Translations under genes and position numbers: made by a program | Notes under the pieces: generated by a model | Told to the model about the DNA's origin: nothing | The model's database searches: none | The model's input: only the letters and a program-made list of their open reading frames with translations | Shown: positions 1 to 56,364 of the stretch, one piece after another | Numbering within the stretch: the first letter of the stretch is position 1 | How the letters are laid out: every line of letters begins with the position of its first letter | Assembly: GCF_900094945.1 (NCBI RefSeq) | Contig: NZ_FMAQ01000009.1 | Coordinates: 1 to 64,000, forward strand | Reading direction: 5' to 3' | DNA from: Gilliamella bombicola | GTDB lineage: Bacteria; Pseudomonadota; Gammaproteobacteria; Enterobacterales; Orbaceae | Length of the DNA: 64,000 nt

Positions 1-230
1 GCCGCTCGGTCTTAACGCACCGTTTGTGGACGCGTTCCAGACGCACCACAAACTCGCCAAACATCCCTGTTTGGCGTGCTAACCTCACTCTGTTGTCGGC
101 ACATTCTGACGCCGGAATAAAACAGACAACATAACCTTGGGTATTTTATGTGAATTGCTTTTTTGTTAAAAAACAATGAAATTACATCCAAAAAGTGGTC
201 AGGAAAGGTATTGATTTTATTGAAGTTTTT
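1..230 (+). repeat. Repeat-arm copy A (cut by window start)
   Basis: Matches positions ~52766-52993 and ~55250-55475 in the same orientation. It holds the hairpin around GCCAAACATCCCTGTTTGGC and ends at 198-230 with the 33-bp terminal repeat beginning GTCAGGAAAGGTATTGATTT. The left part lies outside the window. Positions 735-1175 carry the same sequence inverted, so the two copies flank the CRISPR mini-array. No transposase is visible. I read it as a MITE-like or structured-repeat arm. Confidence 0.75.
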
Positions 231-476
231 ATTTTGCTGTTTTTAAGATAAATCAATCACTTACACAACCTAAGCAAAGCGCCGGCAACTAACAAATCAA
301 CAAAACCAAGAATAGCGCCCCAATAACAGCAAGTTAACCGCTCCAAACCCTTTTTTTAACGATAATTTAAAATTAAATAAAATCAATAAATTATAAAACA
401 CCTCAAAAAAAGGGTTTTCAAAGATGAAATTGTTGTTTATCTTTATACAGCAAGATTTATCAAATCTTAAGCTCTA
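231..476 (+). promoter_or_regulatory. CRISPR leader of mini-array 1
   Basis: AT-rich leader almost identical to 55476-55720. It contains a perfect 13-bp inverted repeat, AAACCCTTTTTTT at 345-357 and AAAAAAAGGGTTT at 405-417. It runs straight into the first CRISPR repeat. Run-of-T/GGGTTT motifs are familiar from type I-F leaders (recalled, not searched). The same motif pair occurs before the lone repeat at 40461. It probably drives rightward transcription of the array. Confidence 0.65.
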
Positions 477-684
477 CCTTAACGCCGTGTAGGCGGTTTA
501 GAAATGCAAGAATAGCCGTTTCAGCATTTAAATATTCCTTAACGCCGTGTAGGCGGTTTAGAAAGTCTAAAAAGTTGACTGATTCTGGCCATATTTCCTT
601 AACGCCGTATAGGCGGTTTAGAAATTGTGCTGTCGTATTGTCCAAATTAGAAAAATCCTTAACGCCGTATAGGCGTTTAATTCA
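477..684 (+). CRISPR. Type I-F-like CRISPR mini-array 1 (3 spacers)
   Basis: Three intact 28-bp repeats at 477-504, 537-564 and 597-624 share the core ACGCCGTGTAGGCGGTTTAG; the third has GTATA in the loop. A degenerate terminal repeat starts at 657 and decays after GGCG. Spacers are 505-536, 565-596 and 625-656, each 32 nt, giving the 60-bp period typical of type I-F. The repeat folds as a short CGCC/GGCG hairpin with a five-base loop, like Cas6f (Csy4) substrates. The degenerate last repeat and the leader on the left set the orientation. No cas gene is in the window. Confidence 0.85.
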
Positions 685-734
685 AATAAAATCAACAATA
701 TAATTATAAAAACACAACAATCTTCCCAAAAACG

Positions 735-1175
735 ATGGTTATGTTATTTGTCTTATTCCGGCGTCAGAATGTGCCGACAACAGAGCGAGGTTAGCACGCC
801 AAACAGGGATGTTTGGCGAGTTTGTGGTGCGCTTGGAGCGCGTCCACAAACGGTGCGTTAAGACCGAGCGCCGGCGTCGGACAAATTTGTCTGGAACAAA
901 TTTGAACATCTGAGCACAGCGAAGATGGCCTCGTAGAGGCGAGTATCAGGATGATACGAGTAGTGCCGCAGGCCACATTCTGCAGCCAAAGCGTGGGTTG
1001 TCAGGGAATTCGCTTTAATTCCCTGACTCGGACGTGGTCACGATAGCTATTTTGTTCCCCAAGGTCAAAACGTCCGAAACCACCACACCCAATCTATCCT
1101 ATTCACCAAAACAAAAAGGCCTGATTTTCCGCCCAAAAATCGGTCAGGAAAGGTATTGATTTTATTGAAGTTTTT
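735..1175 (-). repeat. Repeat-arm copy B (inverted)
   Basis: Reverse complement of the unit at 52459-~52890, ending at 1143-1175 with the outer terminal repeat. It contains several perfect hairpins, for example CGCCAAAC/GTTTGGCG near 799-820, the paired TTTGTGG/CCACAAA arms near 830-850, and AGGGAATT/AATTCCCT near 1001-1025. The inner end is lost where it meets the array. Short open frames here recur only because the repeat recurs. Confidence 0.75.
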
Positions 1176-2444: not shown

Positions 2445-5288
2445 ATGTCAGAATTTAACTCGTCGTTTTCTTCTTTGTTTGAACAACAAAAGCAAAAAGT
2501 TACCACTCAACTTCAACAATGCAATCTAGCTCAAGTGCAAGCTCACCTTGATGTTTTGGTGCAGAGTGATTTTTTGGTTGATGCTTTTAACCGATTCCCT
2601 AACTGGTTTGCTGACATAGTACAAAATCCACCGCAAGCAGATGAAAGGCTATTTTATCAATCTTGGTTAGATGCGCAATTGGCAGATGTGACCGATGAAG
2701 CTATTTTTATGAAAAAACTGCGGTTATTTCGACATTTTATGCTGGTGCGCCTTGCGTGGTCACAATTGGCTAGAATAAGCAATGATGAGCAGATTTTATT
2801 GCAATTGACCGAATTGGCCGAAGTGCTCATTGTCACCGCGCGTAATTGGTTGTACGAACTTAGTTGCAAAGAGTGGGGAACACCTTGCAATGCTCAAGGC
2901 CAAGCGCAACCTTTATTGATTTTAGGTATGGGGAAATTAGGTGGCGGAGAGCTGAACTTTTCGTCCGATATTGACTTGATTTTTACTTATCCCGAGCATG
3001 GGCAAACCCAAGGCGGTCGGCGGGAGCTTGATAATGCTGTCTTTTTTACTCGATTAGGTCAACGCTTAATTAAATCGCTCGATCAGATCACTGAAGATGG
3101 CTTTGTCTATCGTGTTGATATGCGCTTGCGTCCGCTTGGCGATGGTGGGCCTTTGGTGCTTAGCTTTTCTGCCATGGAGGATTATTATCAAGAGCAAGGG
3201 CGAGATTGGGAACGTTATGCCATGGTTAAAGCAAAAGTACTTGGTGATCAGAGCGCCCCTTATGTATGCGAACTGTATCAAATGCTGAAGCCTTTTGTTT
3301 ATCGGCGCTATATTGACTTTAGTGTTTTACAATCATTGCGTAATATGAAAAGTATGATTGAACGTGAAGTGCGTCGCCGTGGTTTAAAAAGTAATATCAA
3401 GCTTGGCGCAGGTGGCATTCGTGAAATAGAGTTTATTGTACAGGTGTTTCAACTTATTCGCGGTGGGCGAGTGGTTAGGTTACAAACTCGTTCGCTATTA
3501 AATGCCCTTCATGTGATTGAACAAGAAGGACTACTTGAATCGAACGAAGTATCATTGTTACGAGAAAATTATCTATTTTTGCGCCGTTGTGAAAATCTTC
3601 TACAAGCCATTGCCGACGAACAGACTCAAACATTACCAGACGATGCACTTGATCAAATTCGCTTAGCTACCAGTATGGGGTTTGGCAATTGGCATGATTT
3701 TGAAAAAGATTTATCTGGACGGATGGAATATAATCGCCAAATTTTTAATGAACTTATTGGCGAAAACGAATCAGAATCTACCTCAACCACCAAGCCTTAT
3801 AACGATCAATTTGACGATCTTTGGGTGCCTGATCTTCAAATAAGCGATGTTAGTGCAATATTACCTACCTATTCAGAAACAGAAGTTGCGCAGATCTACC
3901 AAATGTTAGTGCAATTTCGTGATGATATAGGTAAACGTACCATTGGCGTACGGGGGCGTGAAATCCTCGATCAGTTGATGCCACGTTTGTTAGAATCCGT
4001 CTGTAGCGAAAAGCAAGCAACAATGGTGCTAGCAAGGATTTTGCCATTGCTAGTGAATATTGTAAGTCGTACCACTTATTTAGAGCTGTTACTTGAATAT
4101 TCAACCGCTTTAAAGCAATTAATTCGCCTATGTAGCGCATCACCAATGATTAGCGATCAACTTGCTCATTATCCTATATTGTTAGATGAGCTTATTGATA
4201 TCAATTCGCTGTACCAAACCGTTGCACCTAATGAGTATAAAAGTCAGCTTTATCAGTATTTATTACGTATTCAGTTGGATGATGAGGAGCAACAGCTTGA
4301 AGCATTACGTCAATTTAAGCAGATGCAATTACTGCATATCGCCGCCGCCGATGTTGAGAATGTGTTAACCACCATGAAAGTTAGCGATCACCTAACTTAT
4401 GTGGCTGAATCCTTATTAGATTTTGTGGTACAAATGGCTTGGAATCAAATGGTTGCTCGTTATGGAAGACCAGAATATTTGGCAGATAATGATAAAGGAC
4501 TAGTTGTGGTTGCCTATGGTAAATTAGGTGGCTGGGAATTGGGTTATGGTTCGGACCTTGATTTAGTCTTTTTACATAATTGCCCAGCTAATAGCGTGAC
4601 CAATGGTGATAAGCAGATCGACAGTCGTCAATTTTATTTACGCCTTGTGCAACGTATCATCCATCTATTTAATGTGCGTACTAGCTTTGGTATTTTATAT
4701 GAAGTTGATGTTAGACTTCGTCCTCAAGGCGATGCAGGGCTTCTTGCTTGTAGTTTAGATTCGTTTGAAGATTACCAAATGAATGAAGCTTGGACATGGG
4801 AACATCAAGCCTTAGTACGTGCTCGAGCTGTATATGGTGAAGGTGAATTAATCAAACGCTTTAACCAAATTCGGCATAATGTACTTTGTAAAAAGCGTGA
4901 TGAAGTTGTATTAAAAAAAGAAGTGCGTGAAATGCGTGAAAAAATGAGAGTACATTTAGGTAGCACTCAAAACAATTTATTTAACTTAAAAATTGATGAG
5001 GGCGGTATTGGTGATATTGAATTTTTATCGCAATATCTGGTGCTTAATTATGCTTATCAATATCCTAAGATGACAACATGGAGCGATAATGTTCGTATTT
5101 TAGAACTCGCGGCAAATTACCAAATTATGGATAACGAAGAAGCCCAGCAGTTAACTAAAGCTTATATTGATATGCGTAACGAAATCCATCAATTAGCACT
5201 GCAAGTTTTACCGAGTACGGTTGAGAGCTCGTGTTTTAAACAAGAAAGGCATATTGTTAACCAGAGCTGGAAAAAGTGGCTAGCCTGA
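2445..5288 (+). CDS. glnE: Bifunctional glutamine synthetase adenylyltransferase/adenylyl-removing enzyme
   Basis: About 947 aa, matching E. coli GlnE (946). Both nucleotidyltransferase halves are visible: [18 protein letters not shown] near residue 160 (removing domain) and [18 protein letters not shown] near residue 690 (adenylylating domain), each with the GS-x-D-x-D metal site. The enzyme adjusts glutamine synthetase by adding or removing AMP under PII control. I chose ATG 2445 over TTG 2439 because AAGAGAG at 2431-2437 is well spaced from it. ygiF is upstream. The usual downstream partner hldE is absent; a LacI-type gene follows. Confidence 0.95.
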
Positions 5289-39989: not shown

Positions 39990-40328
39990 ATTTTCAAAAT
40001 TCCTAAATAAAAAATAGGTATTGCCTAATTAGAAAGTAACTGATTTTTACTTCCTTATTAGTCATTTTATCGCTAACTGTTATAGGTGCTATATCATAGC
40101 TGATTTGTTGTTAATTTTCTATCTGCGAGCTTTTATTTGCTTTATTAAGGATGATAAATCCAACCCTAATTATTTTCTCATTTTTCATATATCAGAAAAA
40201 TTGAACTGGTCGCGCTTCTTCATTCTATTGTTGCTTGAAAGTTGTTGATGAACATCATTCAATATCTTTTTTGAGTTTTAGGTTTGGGTAGTACTAAGTC
40301 ATGACACAGTCAAAAAACTAAAAAACAG

Positions 40329-40460
40329 AACCCTTTTTTTTGCCATATTTTAAAAATAAATAAAATCAAATAATTAAAAACTCACTTCAAAAAAGGGTTT
40401 TTAAAACCTAAATAGCTATTTGCCTTTTTACATACAATATTGATAGTATATTAACTTCTA
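40329..40460 (+). promoter_or_regulatory. CRISPR leader relic near hsd
   Basis: AACCCTTTTTTTT (40329-40341) and AAAAAAGGGTTT (40389-40400) with an AATAAATAAAATCAAAT core correspond to the leaders at 231-476 and 55476-55720, ending in ACTTCTA directly before a repeat. More diverged than those two are from each other. Confidence 0.6.
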
Positions 40461-40488
40461 GTTCACTGCCGTGTAGGCAGTTTTAATT
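40461..40488 (+). CRISPR. Single I-F-type CRISPR repeat, no spacer
   Basis: GTTCACTGCCGTGTAGGCAG followed by TTTTAATT. The first 20 bases are nearly the canonical type I-F repeat (stem CTGCC/GGCAG). The 3' end decays to TTTTAATT, just as the terminal repeats of the two mini-arrays decay to TTTAATT. So the locus is a leader plus terminal repeat with no spacer. No second repeat is seen within 300 bp and no cas gene is nearby. Confidence 0.65.
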
Positions 40489-43792: not shown

Positions 43793-44659
43793 ATGATTTC
43801 AAGCATGACTGCTTATGCAAGAAAAGAGGCCAACCAACCATGGGGAACGGCTTCTTGGGAATTACGCTCAGTCAACCAACGTTACTTAGAAACGTATATT
43901 CGTTTGCCCGAGCAATTTCGTTCACTTGAACCTATCGTTCGCGAAAAATTACGTAATCGCCTAACTCGTGGTAAAATCGAATGTAATTTGCGTTTTGAAT
44001 TAGATCCTTCAGCACAACATCAAGAACTTTCATTAAATAAAGAACTGGCTAAACAGATAATTAATGCTGCAAGTTGGATTCAAACTGAACAAGATACAGC
44101 TCAAATTAACCCTATTGATGTATTACGTTGGCCAGGTGTTATGTCGGCAAAAGAGCAAAATTTAGATACTATCTCACAAGAAATTTTAGCTCTACTTGAT
44201 ACCGCAATTGATGAGTTTATTGCGGTACGTGAGCGCGAAGGTAAAGCGCTTTGTGATCTTATTATCAAACGATTAGAAGCGATTACCGTAGAAGTTGACA
44301 AAATCCGCCAATGGATGCCACAAATTCTTGAATGGCAAAAAGAAAGGCTAAAAAGTAAATTAGAAGAAGCCAATATTGAACTTGACAATTCCCGTCTAGA
44401 ACAAGAAATTGTTATGGTTGCACAGCGCATTGATGTTGCCGAAGAGCTTGATCGATTAATGACTCATGTAAAAGAAACTTATTCAATCTTGAAAAAGAAC
44501 GAAGCAGTAGGGCGCAGGCTTGATTTTATGATGCAAGAATTTAATCGAGAGTCTAACACTATTGCGTCTAAATCAATTAATGCTGATGTTACAGCTAGTG
44601 CGATTGAACTCAAAGTGCTTATTGAACAAATCAGAGAGCAAGTACAAAACATTGAGTGA
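43793..44659 (+). CDS. yicC: YicC-family endoribonuclease
   Basis: 288 aa, the E. coli length (287). Starts MISSMTAYARKEA with the ELRSVNQRYLE motif and ends with the conserved EVGRRLDFMMQEFNRESNT-type phrase (here AVGRRLDFMMQEFNRE) and IEQIREQVQNIE. The family has been linked to RNA cleavage and stationary-phase survival. The stop overlaps the first possible start of the next gene. Confidence 0.95.
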   Translation: MISSMTAYARKEANQPWGTASWELRSVNQRYLETYIRLPEQFRSLEPIVREKLRNRLTRGKIECNLRFELDPSAQHQELSLNKELAKQIINAASWIQTEQDTAQINPIDVLRWPGVMSAKEQNLDTISQEILALLDTAIDEFIAVREREGKALCDLIIKRLEAITVEVDKIRQWMPQILEWQKERLKSKLEEANIELDNSRLEQEIVMVAQRIDVAEELDRLMTHVKETYSILKKNEAVGRRLDFMMQEFNRESNTIASKSINADVTASAIELKVLIEQIREQVQNIE

Positions 44660-50210: not shown

Positions 50211-52352
50211 TTATTCCAATTGCGCTACAAGTCCAATTATTTCCGGCAAAATATCCAAAATCAAAGCTAATTGTTGCATTACAAGCAGATCATTATTGGC
50301 TTTATCGTCATCTACTGAATTGACGGAAATGGTATCGATATAATCGACAACAGACTTCTTAATGAATTGGTATTCGCCATCTATCTTTTTATCGCTTAAC
50401 AGATTAATAATATAGACCGACAAATCGTCAAACAGATCGAGCGTCTGTTTTGATATACATTTATCACGATGTGCGCCTAAAGTTGAAAGATAACTAATTA
50501 AAGTATGATTAAGCGTCAATAGACGAAATCCCTGATCAATAACCACCGGATTCATATGTGGCTCTTTGGTCATCAAACTAATTAACGACGATAAATCTGC
50601 ATTACTATCATGCGTAGCTCGTCTTGCTAATCGATATTGTAGATCATTAGTTTTGCCAGACAAATACTGGCGTCCAATTAACGCCAAATAGTGACTATCA
50701 TCATGACAAACACGATCAACGAGTTTAGGCAGATTTCTAAACTGCCAGTCAGGCCAAATAAAGCTCACGGCAAACCAAGCAATAAAACAACCAATCAACG
50801 TTGCAATAATGCGCGAAACAGCCACCGCAATACTGCTTTCGCCAATCAAGCTAAAACTAAAAAACACCAGTAATGTAATAAATGCTGTCGCGTAAGCATA
50901 TTGTGAATTCTTAAATAGAAAAAATAGCCAACCGGTAATAATAATTAACACCAACTGTTCAGGTACACTTGGAAATAAAAACGTTAACGGAATACCTACT
51001 ATGATCCCCAAAATTGTCCCCATTACGCGCAATTTTAGGCGATGTTTTGTGGTGGAATAGTTTGGTTGGCACACAAACAAGCTAGTTAAAATAATCCAAT
51101 ACCCATGTGATAAATCAGAAAAACAAATGACCATATAACCCACAAAAAATACCACACACATACGAATCGCATGGCGAAACAGTGCGGACTTAACCGTCAA
51201 ATTCCCTTTGATTTTGACAAAAATATCATGAAAACGAGTTAACTCCTCGTCAATTAACTGATTATCTTCTTGCTCTTTTGATAAATGTTGCTCGGTATCA
51301 ATATTGGCAAGTAACAGATCAATAGATAGCAAATTTTGATGCAAACTTCTTAGCGCCTTCACCATCATCATATCGGCTTTATTGCTTGCGTGATACTGAT
51401 TAATTGCCTCTTCAAGATACAAAAAATAACGCGAAAACAACGGATCATGCTGATAAGTCTGATTTAACTTAATCGCCATTGCCAACTGAGCACATGCCTT
51501 CGCCTGTAAATTTAAAATACGCGCAAATCGAAACAAGATATCACTATGCTTAAAATGCAGACTCAGTGCTTGATAATTTCCATGTGCCGAACTTGCGCGC
51601 TCGTGGATATCTTGTGCCACAAAATAGTAGCTCAGCATCTTCCTAATATAAGCCTGCCCACGATAGCTTTTTAGCCGATTAAATAGCGAACGCTTGGTGT
51701 GATTAAATGCGCTCACAAGCTGATTATTACTATCGGTCAACTGCAATGTCTGCTTTACAAAATCATTGGTCTCATCAGGATCGAACATTGCCGCCTTAGC
51801 ATCAAGATATTGCGCCAAATAAATAAAACACAGTGACAGCGACTGCTGGGTTGTACGAATAGGTTGAATGATCGACTCAATTAACGAAACAACATTATAC
51901 CAAAGCGCTCCAAGTAACAAAAAACAAGGCAACGTATAATTGTCGGTATATAGGTTATGTCCAAGCATGGTATAAGCCGCAATCAAAAGCGATCCAAAAG
52001 CAATCACCCCATAACGTTGACCAAGCGACCCAAGCATAATAAAAATAAAAGTCGAAGACACCAAACCGACAATAAATAACACAGGAATATCAAATAACAG
52101 CTCGACCGAAAAAGTCGCAATAGCAAAACAGAACAACGTAAAGAGCAAATTAATACAACGGCTTAATAAACGCGTATCAATCTCGGTCAATCCTGCCGCA
52201 ACCACCCCAAGTGTAAGGGGAATCACAAGCGATGTTTGCCCCAAATACCAAGGAACCAAAGTCGATCCAGTCAAACTAATTAACATTCGAAGACTAAAAA
52301 GAAGGTTGCTACTATAAAAGACTTTGCGTAAAGTCAAAATGAATCCGTGCAC
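50211..52352 (-). CDS. yccS: YccS/YhfK-type integral membrane protein (FUSC family)
   Basis: 713 aa (E. coli YccS 717). Two blocks of six or so membrane helices (~20-160 and ~395-525) are separated by a long cytoplasmic helical region, the YccS/YhfK layout. GYWIILTSLFVCQPNYSTTKHRLKLRVMGT is the conserved FUSC-type segment. Relatives are aromatic-acid exporters (AaeB); the substrate here is unknown. Confidence 0.85.
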   Translation of the reverse strand: MHGFILTLRKVFYSSNLLFSLRMLISLTGSTLVPWYLGQTSLVIPLTLGVVAAGLTEIDTRLLSRCINLLFTLFCFAIATFSVELLFDIPVLFIVGLVSSTFIFIMLGSLGQRYGVIAFGSLLIAAYTMLGHNLYTDNYTLPCFLLLGALWYNVVSLIESIIQPIRTTQQSLSLCFIYLAQYLDAKAAMFDPDETNDFVKQTLQLTDSNNQLVSAFNHTKRSLFNRLKSYRGQAYIRKMLSYYFVAQDIHERASSAHGNYQALSLHFKHSDILFRFARILNLQAKACAQLAMAIKLNQTYQHDPLFSRYFLYLEEAINQYHASNKADMMMVKALRSLHQNLLSIDLLLANIDTEQHLSKEQEDNQLIDEELTRFHDIFVKIKGNLTVKSALFRHAIRMCVVFFVGYMVICFSDLSHGYWIILTSLFVCQPNYSTTKHRLKLRVMGTILGIIVGIPLTFLFPSVPEQLVLIIITGWLFFLFKNSQYAYATAFITLLVFFSFSLIGESSIAVAVSRIIATLIGCFIAWFAVSFIWPDWQFRNLPKLVDRVCHDDSHYLALIGRQYLSGKTNDLQYRLARRATHDSNADLSSLISLMTKEPHMNPVVIDQGFRLLTLNHTLISYLSTLGAHRDKCISKQTLDLFDDLSVYIINLLSDKKIDGEYQFIKKSVVDYIDTISVNSVDDDKANNDLLVMQQLALILDILPEIIGLVAQLE

Positions 52353-52458
52353 GGTATATGAACTTTGAATGGGATAATAGCTAATAGGATACTATATTGA
52401 GGGAGATTGGGAAAGTATACTTTGTAATCGTTGTTTTTTTGTTAAAAACAGTTAAATA

Positions 52459-52993
52459 AAAAACTTTAATAAAATCAATACCTTTCCTGACCGATTTTTG
52501 AGCGGAAAATCAGGCCTTCTTGTTTTGGTGAATAGAATAAATTGGACGGTGGTTTCGGACGTTTTGACCTTGGGTGAACAAAATAGCGATTGTGATCACG
52601 TCCGAGCAAAGGGAATTAGAGCGAATTCCCTTTGCAATCCCATGCTTTAGCTGCAGAATGTGGCCTTCGGCACTACTCGTATCATCCTGATACTCGCCTC
52701 TACGAGGCCATCTTCGCTTTGCTCAGATGTTCAAATTTGTTCCAGACAAATTTGTCCTCCGCCGCCGCTCGGTCTTAACGCACCGTTTGTGGACGCGCTC
52801 CCGACGCAGCACAAACTCGCCAAACATCCTTGTTTGGCGTGCTAACCTCACTCTGTTGTCGGCACATTCTGACGCCGGAACAAGACAAACAGCATAGCCC
52901 TAGGTGTTTTTTGGTAAATTGTTTTTTGTTAAAAAGCAATGTAATTACATCCAAAAAGTGGTCAGGAAAGATATTGATTTTATTTAAGTTTTT
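52459..52993 (+). repeat. Full-length repeat unit with 33-bp terminal inverted repeats
   Basis: The left end (52459-52491) and right end (52961-52993) are inverted copies of each other with 2 mismatches in 33. The interior holds many hairpins, including AGGGAATT/AATTCCCT, GTATCATCCTGATAC, and the GCCAAACATCC/TGTTTGGC stem. About 535 bp, no transposase. Same family as 1-230, 735-1175, 21795-22025, 55117-55475 and 55970-56331. MITE-like. Confidence 0.75.
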
Positions 52994-53127
52994 ATTTTGT
53001 GGTTTTTAGCCAAAAATATCACCAAAACCATCCCCCCAAAAAAATAGGCCAACAAAAGTTTAACCTTACACACTTAACAAAACCTTAAAATTTTTAACAA
53101 AAACTAGCGTATTCTTAATCAACCGGT

Positions 53128-53233: not shown

Positions 53234-53273
53234 TGCCATGCATGGCATCTGGCATCTGGCATCTGGCATGCCA
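53234..53273 (+). repeat. 7-bp tandem repeat framed by palindromes
   Basis: GGCATCT occurs three times in a row plus a partial fourth (53244-53269). The perfect palindromes TGCCATGCATGGCA (53234-53247) and TGGCATGCCA (53264-53273) bound it. Seven is not a multiple of three, so copy-number changes move the frame. Confidence 0.8.
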
Positions 53274-54888
53274 AACCTACGCCCTAAATCTTTTTCAATT
53301 TCACCGTAGTCTAAATCAGATACAGTTCTTATTATCATCACCGAAGTCATTTCGCGTAGCGAAATCGGCGACGTTGTCGGCAAGGTTATCGCCGATTCCC
53401 AAATTGTTATCTAAAACTTCATTATTATCTAAATCTGCATTGGTCTTTGCTCTATTGTTGTTATTGTCGTATAAGCAGGATACAGAGGCGTTGACGGTAA
53501 AGACAACCAATACTATTTACGGTAGTGCACCGTATTTAACGTTTGATGGAGGACCGACAAAGGTAACCGATACAGACACCTTTTTGGCAATAGAGTTGCC
53601 GGATGGTAGAACTATCACGCCTTCAACTAACACATCGAGTTCGACAAACCCGATAAGGTTACCCAATGGTAATTTTACATTTAATGATATTCATATGGTG
53701 TTGCCGTCGGGTTCAGATAGCATAAGTCTCAACAATTTAATTACCCAAGGGAAGTGGGGAGATGATGATGGAGATGGACAGGGAGTCAATGGAGTTACCG
53801 CATCAGGGAGTATAGATTTAATAATAAAGGATAAAGATGGCAATACCATTAATCGTAGTGATTCATTAAGTATATGTGGTGCCCCTTATAAAGTAACTTT
53901 AAGTAGTACAGGAGGGAATTTAGTTACGCAGTATGGTGTGCCGAATAGGAGTACGTTTGGAGGGGGTACAGCGGAGTATTATATCACTTTGTCGTCGCCA
54001 GTTATTTGTTCGGTCAGGCCGAATTTGTTGTTGGGTGGCACAACTGGTATAGATTCTCGCGACGGCCCTTACCGAGCAGGCCCATCTAACATATGGAATC
54101 CTGATAAGGGCTTTTTAGTTCAGTCAACGAGTTCATTATCTTACGACCGAAATTTTCCTACAACCGGTTCAGATGGATTGTATTTTGATTTGGATATTGG
54201 TGGGATAGATGGAAGTCAGTTGAGTTGGTCTATTTACACAAGTGGTGATATCAGTGCAACGGTGATATGGACAAGGCCGCGTTCAGGCTCACATCAAGAC
54301 CCATTTATGGGAACAGTTCAAAACGACGCTTGGATTAGAAATAAATCACGGAACGTAACACGGGTAACGTTGAATGGTCCTAGGGCGAGTAGTAGTCAGA
54401 TAAATTCAAATTATCCTAGTTCACTTAGACGTCCATCTTTGCCGCAGACCTTTGAGTTGGTGGGTAGGGATAGAAGTGGTAATGAGGTGAAGTATGGATT
54501 TGTGTTGAGGCAGTGGTTCGTCAATCGGGACGTTCAAATGGCTCACGTTTCTAATCAAGCCACATGGTGTAATAGTTTGGGTTATCGTATGCCAAGGGTA
54601 AGTGATTTAACCAATGCGAAGTGTGGTGTAGATAATAGTTGGTTCCCATGTGTAAATGGCATAGATGGCGCCAGTCCGTCGTCAGATGGTTATTATTACC
54701 AGCGTCACATAGGGGCGGGTTTTTTCACAGAGTGGGGCTCTATGGGTTACTCCTCTGATGCAGGCTTCGTCGATGGTGTCTACTGGACGAGTGATGCAAC
54801 AGGTAGCAACCAGTTCTTTGTCTCCTCGGGCACCGGCGCCGTCCGCAGCGATAGCAGTGGCTACTATACTGTTTGTACCGCACCTTAG
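53242..54888 (+). CDS. Putative exported adhesin-like protein with lectin-like C-terminus
   Basis: 548 aa, function not recognised with certainty. A hydrophobic run KSALVFALLLLLSYK near 65-79 could be a signal segment, so the true start may be later or alternate. The body is Ser/Thr/Gly-rich and beta-like. The C-terminus (WCNSLGYRMPRVSDL, then VYWTSDATGSNQFFVSSGTGAV) resembles DUF1566/lectin-like ends of enterobacterial invasin-type proteins. The 5' end carries 7-bp tandem repeats (GGCATCT); the best ribosome site serves an out-of-frame ATG at 53228. Flanked on both sides by repeat arms. The 3' end is visibly more GC-rich than the rest. Confidence 0.6.
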   Translation: MASGIWHLACQTYALNLFQFHRSLNQIQFLLSSPKSFRVAKSATLSARLSPIPKLLSKTSLLSKSALVFALLLLLSYKQDTEALTVKTTNTIYGSAPYLTFDGGPTKVTDTDTFLAIELPDGRTITPSTNTSSSTNPIRLPNGNFTFNDIHMVLPSGSDSISLNNLITQGKWGDDDGDGQGVNGVTASGSIDLIIKDKDGNTINRSDSLSICGAPYKVTLSSTGGNLVTQYGVPNRSTFGGGTAEYYITLSSPVICSVRPNLLLGGTTGIDSRDGPYRAGPSNIWNPDKGFLVQSTSSLSYDRNFPTTGSDGLYFDLDIGGIDGSQLSWSIYTSGDISATVIWTRPRSGSHQDPFMGTVQNDAWIRNKSRNVTRVTLNGPRASSSQINSNYPSSLRRPSLPQTFELVGRDRSGNEVKYGFVLRQWFVNRDVQMAHVSNQATWCNSLGYRMPRVSDLTNAKCGVDNSWFPCVNGIDGASPSSDGYYYQRHIGAGFFTEWGSMGYSSDAGFVDGVYWTSDATGSNQFFVSSGTGAVRSDSSGYYTVCTAP

Positions 54889-55116: not shown

Positions 55117-55475
55117 TACGGCAAGGTTGACCTTGGGTGAACAAAATAGCTACAGTGACCACGTCCGAGCAAAGGGAATTAAAGCGAATTCCCTTTGCAA
55201 TCCCACGCTTTGGCTACAGAATGTGGCCTGCGGCTGCCCGACGCCGCCGCTCGGTCTTAACGCACCGTTTGTGGACGCGCTCCCGGCGCACCACAAACTC
55301 GCCAAACGTCCTGTTTGGCGTGCTAACCTCACTCTGTTGTCGGCACATTCTGACGCCGGAACAAGACAGACAACATAATCTTAGGTGTTTTTTGGTGAGT
55401 TATTTTTGTGTTAAAAAGCAATGTAATTACATCCAAAAAGTGGTCAGGAAATTTATTGATTTTATTGAAGTTTTT
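55117..55475 (+). repeat. Repeat-arm copy (left end missing)
   Basis: Matches the unit 52459-52993 from the GACCTTGGGTGAACAAAATAG word onward, but lacks the middle ~65 bp (GTATCATCC... and CAAATTTGTTCC stems) and the outer terminal repeat. Ends with the terminal repeat at 55443-55475. Leads straight into a CRISPR leader. Confidence 0.75.
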
Positions 55476-55720
55476 GTTTTGCCGTTTTCAAGCTAAATCA
55501 ATCAATTAAACAACCTAAGCAAAGCGCCGACTACAACAAATCAACAAAACCACAAATAGCGCCCTAATAACAGCAAATTAACCGCTCCAAACCCTTTTTT
55601 TAACGACAATTTAAAATTAAATAAAATCAATAAATTATAAAACACCTCAAAAAAAGGGTTTTCAAAACCAAAATTGTTGTTTATCTTTATACAGCAAGAT
55701 TTATCAAATCTTGAGTTCTA
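55476..55720 (+). promoter_or_regulatory. CRISPR leader of mini-array 2
   Basis: Near-identical to 231-476, with the same AAACCCTTTTTTT (55589-55601) / AAAAAAAGGGTTT (55649-55661) inverted repeat and the TTTATACAGCAAGATTTATC word before the first repeat. Confidence 0.65.
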
Positions 55721-55928
55721 CCTTAACGCCGTGTAGGCGGTTTAGAAAGCTGAGTCAGAAAAAACTTGGATAGCGCCCAACCTTAACGCCGTGTAGGCGG
55801 TTTAGAAAGTTGAAAATAGTAATCCCTGTTGATATCGCACCCTTAACGCCGTGTAGGCGGTTTAGAAATCCGGCGGGGTGGTTTGAGTGCAACGGCGCTC
55901 CCTTAACGCCGTGTAGGCATTTAATTGA
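55721..55928 (+). CRISPR. Type I-F-like CRISPR mini-array 2 (3 spacers)
   Basis: Intact 28-bp repeats at 55721-55748, 55781-55808 and 55841-55868 share the core ACGCCGTGTAGGCGG; the terminal repeat at 55901 decays after TAGGC into ATTTAATT. Spacers 55749-55780, 55809-55840 and 55869-55900 are 32 nt each and differ from those of array 1. The third spacer is very GC-rich for this genome, pointing to foreign origin. No cas gene nearby. Confidence 0.85.
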
Positions 55929-55969
55929 AATAAATTATATAATTATAAAAAACAATATCTTCCAAAAAA

Positions 55970-56331
55970 GATGGTTATGTTGTTTGTCCTATTCCGGCGT
56001 CAGAATGTGCCGACAACAGAGCGAGGTTAGCACGCCAAACAGGGATGTTTGGCGAGTTTGTGGTGCGCCGGGAGCGCGTCCACAAACGGTGCGTCAAGAC
56101 CGAGCGTCGGCGTCGGGCAGCCGCAGGCCACATTCTGCAGCCAAAGCGTGGGTTGTCAGGGAATTCGCTTTAATTCCCTGACTCGGACGTGGTCACTGTA
56201 GCTATTTTATCCACCCAAGGTCAAAACGTCCGAAACCACCGCACCCAATCCATCCTATTCACCAACCCAAAAAGGCCTGATTTTCCGCCCAAAAATCAGT
56301 CAGAAAACATATTGATTTTATTAAAGTTTTT
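55970..56331 (-). repeat. Repeat-arm copy (inverted)
   Basis: Inverted relative to 55117-55475 and parallel to 735-1175; outer terminal repeat at 56299-56331. It also lacks the ~65-bp middle segment missing from 55117-55475, so the two arms of cassette 2 match each other better than those of cassette 1. Confidence 0.75.
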
Positions 56332-56364
56332 ATTTTGTGTTTTTACATAAAAACCTACATAAAA

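What the first reader, a model, noticed from the sequence alone, without database searches (positions are those of the whole stretch)
55117..56331. CRISPR mini-array 2 with the same architecture
Arm, leader, three spacers, decayed terminal repeat, inverted arm: the same plan as 1-1175 but with different spacers, 55 kb away. Its two arms share the same ~65-bp internal deletion, suggesting that the cassette arose by copying one arm or moved as a unit.
Basis: partly seen in the sequence, partly recalled or inferred. Interest (0 to 1): 0.75.

Follow-up and report, generated by a model that had tools for sequence, protein, structure and literature searches.

The report
Scattered copy-and-refill CRISPR mini-arrays
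A bee-gut bacterium keeps its CRISPR virus memories in about ten tiny arrays scattered round the chromosome instead of one long array beside its cas genes; the arrays look like copies of one another that were later refilled, which gives a natural record of how CRISPR arrays multiply.

Summary
At 55117-56345 a type I-F CRISPR mini-array (three 28-nt repeats, decayed terminal repeat, three 32-nt spacers, leader with an IHF site) lies between inverted copies of an abundant intergenic repeat. It is one of 10 such cassettes in this Gilliamella genome. The single intact cas operon lies on another contig with no array beside it. A further leader at window 40461 is joined directly to a terminal repeat, without spacers, where relatives hold 11-16 repeats. 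Relatives show separate expansions: 19 arrays of three or more repeats in held stretches of one single-contig genome (G001). Spacers shared between G001 arrays are mostly leader-distal (17 of 21 pairs, from three spacer families), as expected if cassettes are copied and then refilled.

The arm inference fails: the two arms of this cassette do not pair on a tree, and the 'shared deletion' occurs in at least 15 copies. A ~550-aa surface-protein-like gene lies directly upstream in 5 of 5 cassettes whose upstream is assembled. Spread by recombination among repeated islets fits best; transposition is not excluded (no target-site duplication readable, no transposase search). Expression, interference and targets are unshown. 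Verdict: new, unusually multi-copy variant of a known kind.

The parts
55127..55488 (+). left arm: copy of the abundant intergenic repeat (MITE-like) lacking its left end; its right terminal repeat (55442-55475) lies next to the leader
55489..55720 (+). leader; IHF consensus WATCAANNNNTTR at 55625-55637, 96 nt before repeat 1
   Evidence: 90.6-96.6% identical in the seven other G000 cassettes with a leader; IHF site
55721..55748 (+). CRISPR repeat 1
55749..55780 (+). spacer 1
   Evidence: no target found
55781..55808 (+). CRISPR repeat 2
55809..55840 (+). spacer 2
   Evidence: no target found
55841..55868 (+). CRISPR repeat 3
55869..55900 (+). spacer 3 (leader-distal)
   Evidence: no target found
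55901..55928 (+). decayed terminal repeat; the same kind of decay (TTTAAT after GGC) is seen at the ends of the other cassettes
55929..55985 (+). trailer, passing into the right arm
55947..56345 (-). right arm: inverted copy of the same repeat lacking its right end; same internal deletion as the left arm
53242..54888 (+). gene of a large surface-protein-like family (548 aa, no Pfam or NCBIfam match) directly upstream of the cassette
52441..53020 (+). full-length solo copy of the arm element with both terminal repeats, at the left border of the 4.06-kb interval before pgm
1..1175 (+). sister cassette: left arm 1-245 (cut by contig start), leader 245-476, repeats at 477, 537, 597, terminal repeat 657, right arm 716-1175
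40311..40488 (+). collapsed array: leader (to 40460) joined directly to one terminal repeat (40461-40488), no spacers
   Evidence: the syntenic place holds 16 repeats in G034 and 11 in G022; terminal repeat and following sequence nearly identical to those of a G017 array; leader class; sequence

Best explanation
A type I-F CRISPR-Cas system works in trans from scattered mini-array cassettes. One intact cas operon supplies adaptation, processing and interference. The arrays are multi-copy cassettes (leader + repeats/spacers + decayed terminal repeat) embedded in repeated surface-protein/MITE islets. A cassette is copied by recombination (duplication or gene conversion) among these repeats and inherits at least the leader-distal spacer. 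It is then refilled at the leader end by Cas1-Cas2/3 and trimmed by repeat-repeat deletion, which can shrink an array to leader + one repeat. Shown by sequence: cassettes, cas operon, scattering, homology, shared leader-distal spacers (strongly in G001, one case each in G000 and G006), leader joined to a lone terminal repeat. Inferred: transcription, processing, continued acquisition, interference, and recombination rather than transposition.
For: Ten cassettes with spacers on C8, C11, C15 (two), C16, C17, C18, C20 (two) and C24; 23 distinct spacers in 24 counted slots. One Csy4 hit in the genome; intact cas1, cas2-3 and csy1-4, NCBIfam I-F models above cut-off; csy4 ends 118 bp from the next gene and the repeat search (up to 3 mismatches) has no hit on the operon's contig C19. 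Hairpin covariation over 31 repeat variants: 89.7% of cells paired (shuffled 72.6%), covariation 0.56 against 0.21, both 0 of 500 shuffles. IHF site at -95 to -98 in 56 of 69 leaders, 9 of 9 in G000; Markov control mean 1.5, max 7. Leader hits in 20 of 21 csy4-positive and 5 of 14 csy4-negative genus genomes. Leader tree: nearest neighbour in the same genome for 37 of 57; shuffled mean 7.2, max 19. Shared spacers in G001: 17 of 21 pairs leader-distal in both arrays, permutation mean 1.5, max 13 in 2000. Tandem cassettes in G001 (L111) share the spacers at positions 2-5 (one base differs at position 2) but not the leader-proximal one. Surface-protein-like gene directly upstream, same orientation, in 5 of 5 G000 cassettes with assembled upstream.
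Against: No target found: the two window arrays have no match in 50,697 phage records at E up to 1, and near-exact patterns of five of the six window spacers and of one C8/C24 spacer have 0 hits in IMG/VR. Window repeats have A6.G20 where the canonical I-F hairpin (recalled) has C6-G20, which could weaken Csy4 processing; 14 of 31 variants lack a standard pair there. Two of five covariation measures do not exceed shuffles (pairs changed on both sides 129 of 500, further pair types 455 of 500). Arrays are short (1-4 spacers as assembled), as dying arrays would be. Five of ten cassettes are cut by a contig end (C8, C15 at 1, C17, C18, C20 at 373 kb). The 17 leader-distal pairs come from only three spacer families. 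In G000 and G006 one of two shared pairs is leader-distal, and for G000 that is no more than permutation gives (mean 0.39, max 1).
Confidence: 0.68

Rival explanations
1. Composite-MITE transposition: two inverted MITE copies with their outer ends carry the leader-array as cargo, moved by a transposase acting in trans.
For: The interval at 52.4-56.3 kb is bordered by the same end sequence in inverted orientation; 133 such ends in the genome, control 0; the plan MITE(+)-leader-array-MITE(-) recurs in G027 (L122), G034 (L126) and G017 (L127); 0 of 5 relatives carry an array directly upstream of the gene beside the sister cassette.
Against: No target-site duplication could be read at the pgm locus; the arrayless sites of G009, G022 and G028 hold short matches to the element ends (15, 26 and 15 nt) and G028 also to the gene family (47 aa, 43%), so loss is as likely as gain; G034 holds none to the element. 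The left arm lacks its left end where it is assembled (this cassette, C11, C16, and the arrayless C20 one). In G001 no inverted arm adjoins the arrays; two inverted pieces lie 2.3-2.7 kb beyond one cluster. In G009 (L128) only the right arm fits the plan.
Confidence: 0.2
2. Dying orphan arrays: passive passengers of repeat expansion that no longer acquire or defend.
For: 1-4 spacers each; A6.G20 at the hairpin base; no targets found; 5 of 14 csy4-negative genomes keep leaders; a cassette without repeats at C20:5454-6139.
Against: Leader IHF site and first repeats intact; different leader-proximal spacers on top of shared leader-distal ones; intact cas operon.
Confidence: 0.2
3. MITEs inserted independently on each side of old, separately inherited arrays.
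For: MITE copies are very common in the genome and solo copies mix with arms on the tree.
Against: The same truncation points and trailer recur in several cassettes; the eight G000 cassette leaders form one recent group with one G009 leader.
Confidence: 0.06

Closest known systems
Type I-F CRISPR-Cas (Ypest/Csy) with several arrays
   Same: cas1, cas2-3, csy1-4; 28-nt repeat with hairpin and GTTTAGAAA end; 32-nt spacers; IHF site in leader
   Different: No array beside the cas operon in this genome; ten scattered cassettes of 1-4 spacers inside repeated islets; 19 arrays of three or more repeats in held stretches of G001. PMC12814883 (section 13 and passages read) gives a median of two arrays for I-F, numbers up to around 10 as rare, and 23 (one V-A locus) as the maximum.
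Array duplication with shared last spacer, as discussed in PMC12814883
   Same: Shared leader-distal spacer as a mark of common ancestry (4.1% in that paper's comparison)
   Different: Here lineage-specific multiplication within a genus, with a visible physical carrier and drifted leader-distal spacers
MITEs (transposase-free inverted-repeat elements)
   Same: Multi-copy, short, terminal inverted repeats in full-length copies
   Different: Target-site duplication not found and partner transposase not tested; one strand resembles TwoAYGGAY RNA
MITE inserted in a CRISPR array of Haloquadratum walsbyi (PMC3119063, passages read)
   Same: A MITE physically joined to a CRISPR array
   Different: There the MITE interrupts a spacer; here it flanks whole cassettes

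Membership tests
Type I-F CRISPR-Cas | csy1-4, cas1f and cas2-3f genes | tested here: met
   all above NCBIfam cut-offs (Cas2-3 scored on its C-terminal 680 aa; the N-terminal part is open in the same frame)
Type I-F CRISPR-Cas | 28-nt repeat with 5-bp hairpin, ~32-nt spacers | tested here: met
   period 60; covariation. Caveats: pair 6-20 is not standard in 14 of 31 variants, the window's included; Rfam CRISPR-DR4 hit below its gathering score (20.7 against 35)
Type I-F CRISPR-Cas | leader with IHF site | tested here: met
   9 of 9 G000 leaders, 56 of 69 in all
Type I-F CRISPR-Cas | leader-end spacer acquisition | tested here: inconclusive
   indirect: leader-distal sharing in G001 strong, in G000 one pair only
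Type I-F CRISPR-Cas | protospacers with CC PAM | tested here: inconclusive
   no window target found; a G001 leader-distal spacer matches Rosemountvirus phages at 27 of 32 without CC
Type I-F CRISPR-Cas | crRNA production and interference | not testable with these tools
   needs RNA and phage work
MITE | terminal inverted repeats, multi-copy | tested here: met
   (full-length copies; cassette arms are truncated)
MITE | target-site duplication | tested here: inconclusive
   AT-rich junctions, none readable by eye
MITE | partner transposon with the same ends | not tested
   the genome was not scanned for a transposase between such ends
CRISPR-associated transposon (Tn7-like I-F3) | Cascade without cas1 and cas2-3 | tested here: not met
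   the operon has cas1 and cas2-3
CRISPR-associated transposon (Tn7-like I-F3) | tns/tniQ genes | not tested
   no search was made for them

The most novel reading that the evidence does not exclude
CRISPR arrays as true mobile cargo: a non-autonomous composite element (inverted MITE copies) that moves a leader-array cassette round the chromosome and between Gilliamella strains. Each landing is a refillable memory bank served in trans by one cas operon, lying beside surface-protein (perhaps phage-receptor) genes that diversify by the same recombination.
Probability: 0.2. Interest if true: 0.85.

Novelty: new variant of a known kind. Interest (0 to 1): 0.6.

Why it matters
How CRISPR arrays multiply inside a genome is mostly inferred from statistics. 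Here a genus shows apparent steps side by side: arrays with the same drifted leader-distal spacer but different later spacers, tandem copies, an array reduced to leader and terminal repeat, and a recognisable repeated carrier. It makes array duplication, refilling in trans and loss testable in bacteria that can be grown from bee guts (culturability recalled).

Tried and rejected
Arms as a copied pair: not supported by the arm tree (28 of 35 arm sequences kept, 7 dropped as too gappy). Array next to cas: none in this genome. Frameshifted cas2-3: first suspected because the ORF listing began at an internal ATG near the locus edge; one search shows an open frame. Spacers aimed at the surface-protein genes: 476 distinct spacers against 1.27 Mb of held loci gave three matches of 24 nt or more outside arrays, none in that family by position: two to csy2 and one to a stretch of L064 before the cas genes. 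Viral targets of window spacers: none. Arrays of G001 and G017 as queries: repeated with spread rows, gave 89 records: 47 Vibrio (those listed are ICP1 and JSF phages, matched over much of the array at about 70-73%, which fits ICP1's own I-F array, recalled) and 42 others, of which those listed are short single pieces; most of these are one spot in Rosemountvirus phages matching the last spacer (27 of 32, E 0.08-1, no CC PAM); 44 of 89 records were not listed. Searches gave only weak hits (E 0.2-1), not followed. Rows dropped: two chance arrays (27408, 16247); from 59 repeat variants, 24 seen once and four from the non-Gilliamella loci L058-L061 (checked), leaving 31. The leader set (69) kept only leaders with the AAAAAAGGGTTTT motif within 2 mismatches and only from loci that I had fetched. 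Arrays counted include split pieces (12 pieces for 10 G000 cassettes; 22 for G001, against 19 of three or more repeats). One search scored at most 21 candidates per genome, so its counts are lower bounds.

Full report
WHAT IS THERE. The window is contig C15 (1-64000) of a 2.32-Mb genome in 29 contigs. The reported array is real: three exact 28-nt repeats, a decayed fourth, three 32-nt spacers, a leader and two inverted arms. The repeat resembles that of type I-F (recalled; Rfam's CRISPR-DR4 hit is below its cut-off).

NOT ONE BUT TEN. The repeat occurs 25 times, control 0, in ten cassettes with 1-4 spacers as assembled, on eight contigs. Eight have the leader; C8 and C17 are cut before it by the contig end. 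The one Csy4 gene found lies in an operon on C19 with csy4, csy3, csy2, csy1, cas2-3 and cas1, all intact, and C19 has no repeat hit. At window 40461 a leader of another class is joined straight to a terminal repeat; the syntenic place (same side of the gene at 43793) holds 16 repeats in G. mensalis and 11 in G022. So this genome seems to have lost a longer array and works, if it works, from scattered small ones.

ARMS. The arm element is an abundant intergenic repeat of ~570 bp with terminal inverted repeats in full-length copies; its end motif occurs 133 times, control 0. A full copy stands at 52441-53020. In the cassettes the left arm lacks the element's left end and the right arm its right end. 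On the tree of 28 arms and solo copies the arms of this cassette and of C11 do not pair; those of C16 do; solo copies are mixed in.

GENE NEIGHBOURS. A family of ~550-aa proteins with a conserved C-terminus (often ...VCTTP or VCTAP), without Pfam or NCBIfam match, gives 63 tblastn matches in the genome, pieces included. In 5 of 5 cassettes whose upstream side is assembled (C11, C15 at 55 kb, C16, C20 at 343 kb, C24) such a gene lies 0.5-0.95 kb upstream, in the same orientation. 'Surface protein' is an inference from its look only.

SYNTENY. Between the gene at 50211-52352 and pgm, G009 has 145 bp, G022 299 bp, G034 329 bp and G028 867 bp without array, while this genome has 4.06 kb and G020 2.9 kb with an array and a gene of the family. 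G009, G022 and G028 hold short matches to the element's ends, G028 also a fragment like the gene family; G034 has no match to the element. So some arrayless sites may be deletions. At the sister cassette's site, 0 of 5 relatives have an array directly upstream of the gene at 1410, in 1.2 kb (G009) to about 10 kb held.

COPY AND REFILL. A tree of 69 leaders from 24 genomes shows lineage-specific expansion (18 leaders of G001 in one clade; 8 of G000 with one of G009); the nearest neighbour is in the same genome for 37 of 57, shuffled mean 7.2, max 19. In G001 (one contig) the held stretches have 19 arrays of three or more repeats, several as tandem ~950-bp cassettes, with 125 distinct spacers in 129 slots. 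Of 21 spacer pairs shared between its arrays (up to 5 mismatches), 17 are leader-distal in both; permutation mean 1.5, max 13 in 2000; they come from three spacer families. G006: 1 of 2 (permutation mean 0.06, max 2). G000: 1 of 2 (mean 0.39, max 1), namely C17 and C24, whose flanks are 92.6% identical. Copying followed by leader-end acquisition predicts this; the case rests mainly on G001.

FUNCTION SIGNS. Compensating changes keep the repeat hairpin over 31 variants on three of five measures; the other two do not exceed shuffles. Pair 6-20 is A.G in the window's repeats. An IHF consensus sits at a fixed distance in 56 of 69 leaders. Leaders are found in 20 of 21 csy4-positive genus genomes and 5 of 14 csy4-negative ones (one hit, G011, is marginal at E 9.4e-4). 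No target of a window spacer was found. The leader-distal spacer shared by five G001 arrays matches a structural or hypothetical gene of Rosemountvirus phages at 27 of 32 without CC PAM: a hint, no more.

LITERATURE. [quoted passage not shown] Three bee-gut phage papers (passages of PMC12586679, PMC9040601, PMC13331135) use or cite CRISPR spacers of bee-gut bacteria for host calls; the passages seen do not describe scattered cassettes. In listings of searches for Gilliamella CRISPR, array duplication or MITE-borne arrays (open-licence library only; most papers listed were not opened) I saw no such report.

VERDICT. A new variant of a known kind: a type I-F system with multi-copy, scattered, apparently refilled mini-array cassettes. 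Recombination among repeated islets is the likelier carrier; composite-MITE transposition remains open.

Noticed in passing
window 56028-56099 (+), 55255-55325 (-), 52773-52844 (-); L078:2009-2079 (-): One strand of the arm element resembles TwoAYGGAY RNA (RF01731): below the gathering score in the window (37.6, 31.4, 35.1 against 43), above it in one copy (L078, 44.4). A multi-copy repeat may carry hairpins with GGA loops (CsrA-type binding is recalled, not tested).
   Followed up: partly
L095 (G028), spacer after the repeat at 3075 (-); target L064:13234-13265: A spacer of G028 matches csy2 of this genome at 31 of 32 and that of G027 at 28 of 32, with no match within 5 mismatches in G028's own cas region held (L234), and without a CC PAM; recalls anti-cas spacers of E. 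coli I-F arrays.
   Followed up: partly
C8 array spacer 1 (L023) and C24 array spacer 3 (L028): Two spacers differ at only 3 of 32 bases, at positions 3, 4 and 5 from the leader-side end; could be re-acquisition from an escape variant.
   Followed up: no
G001: last spacers of L111-3350, L111-4300, L113-3660, L113-4670, L113-6515; phage stretches L240-L242: The leader-distal spacer shared by five arrays, with 1-3 differences among copies, resembles one spot in Rosemountvirus phage genomes (best 27 of 32, E 0.08).
   Followed up: partly
C20:5454-6139 (L065): Cassette with arm parts and part of the leader joined to trailer, no repeats left: a dead cassette.
   Followed up: no
   Followed up: no
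L064:15133-15465 (-): A 110-aa ORF lies between csy1 and cas2-3 in the cas operon; not identified.
   Followed up: no
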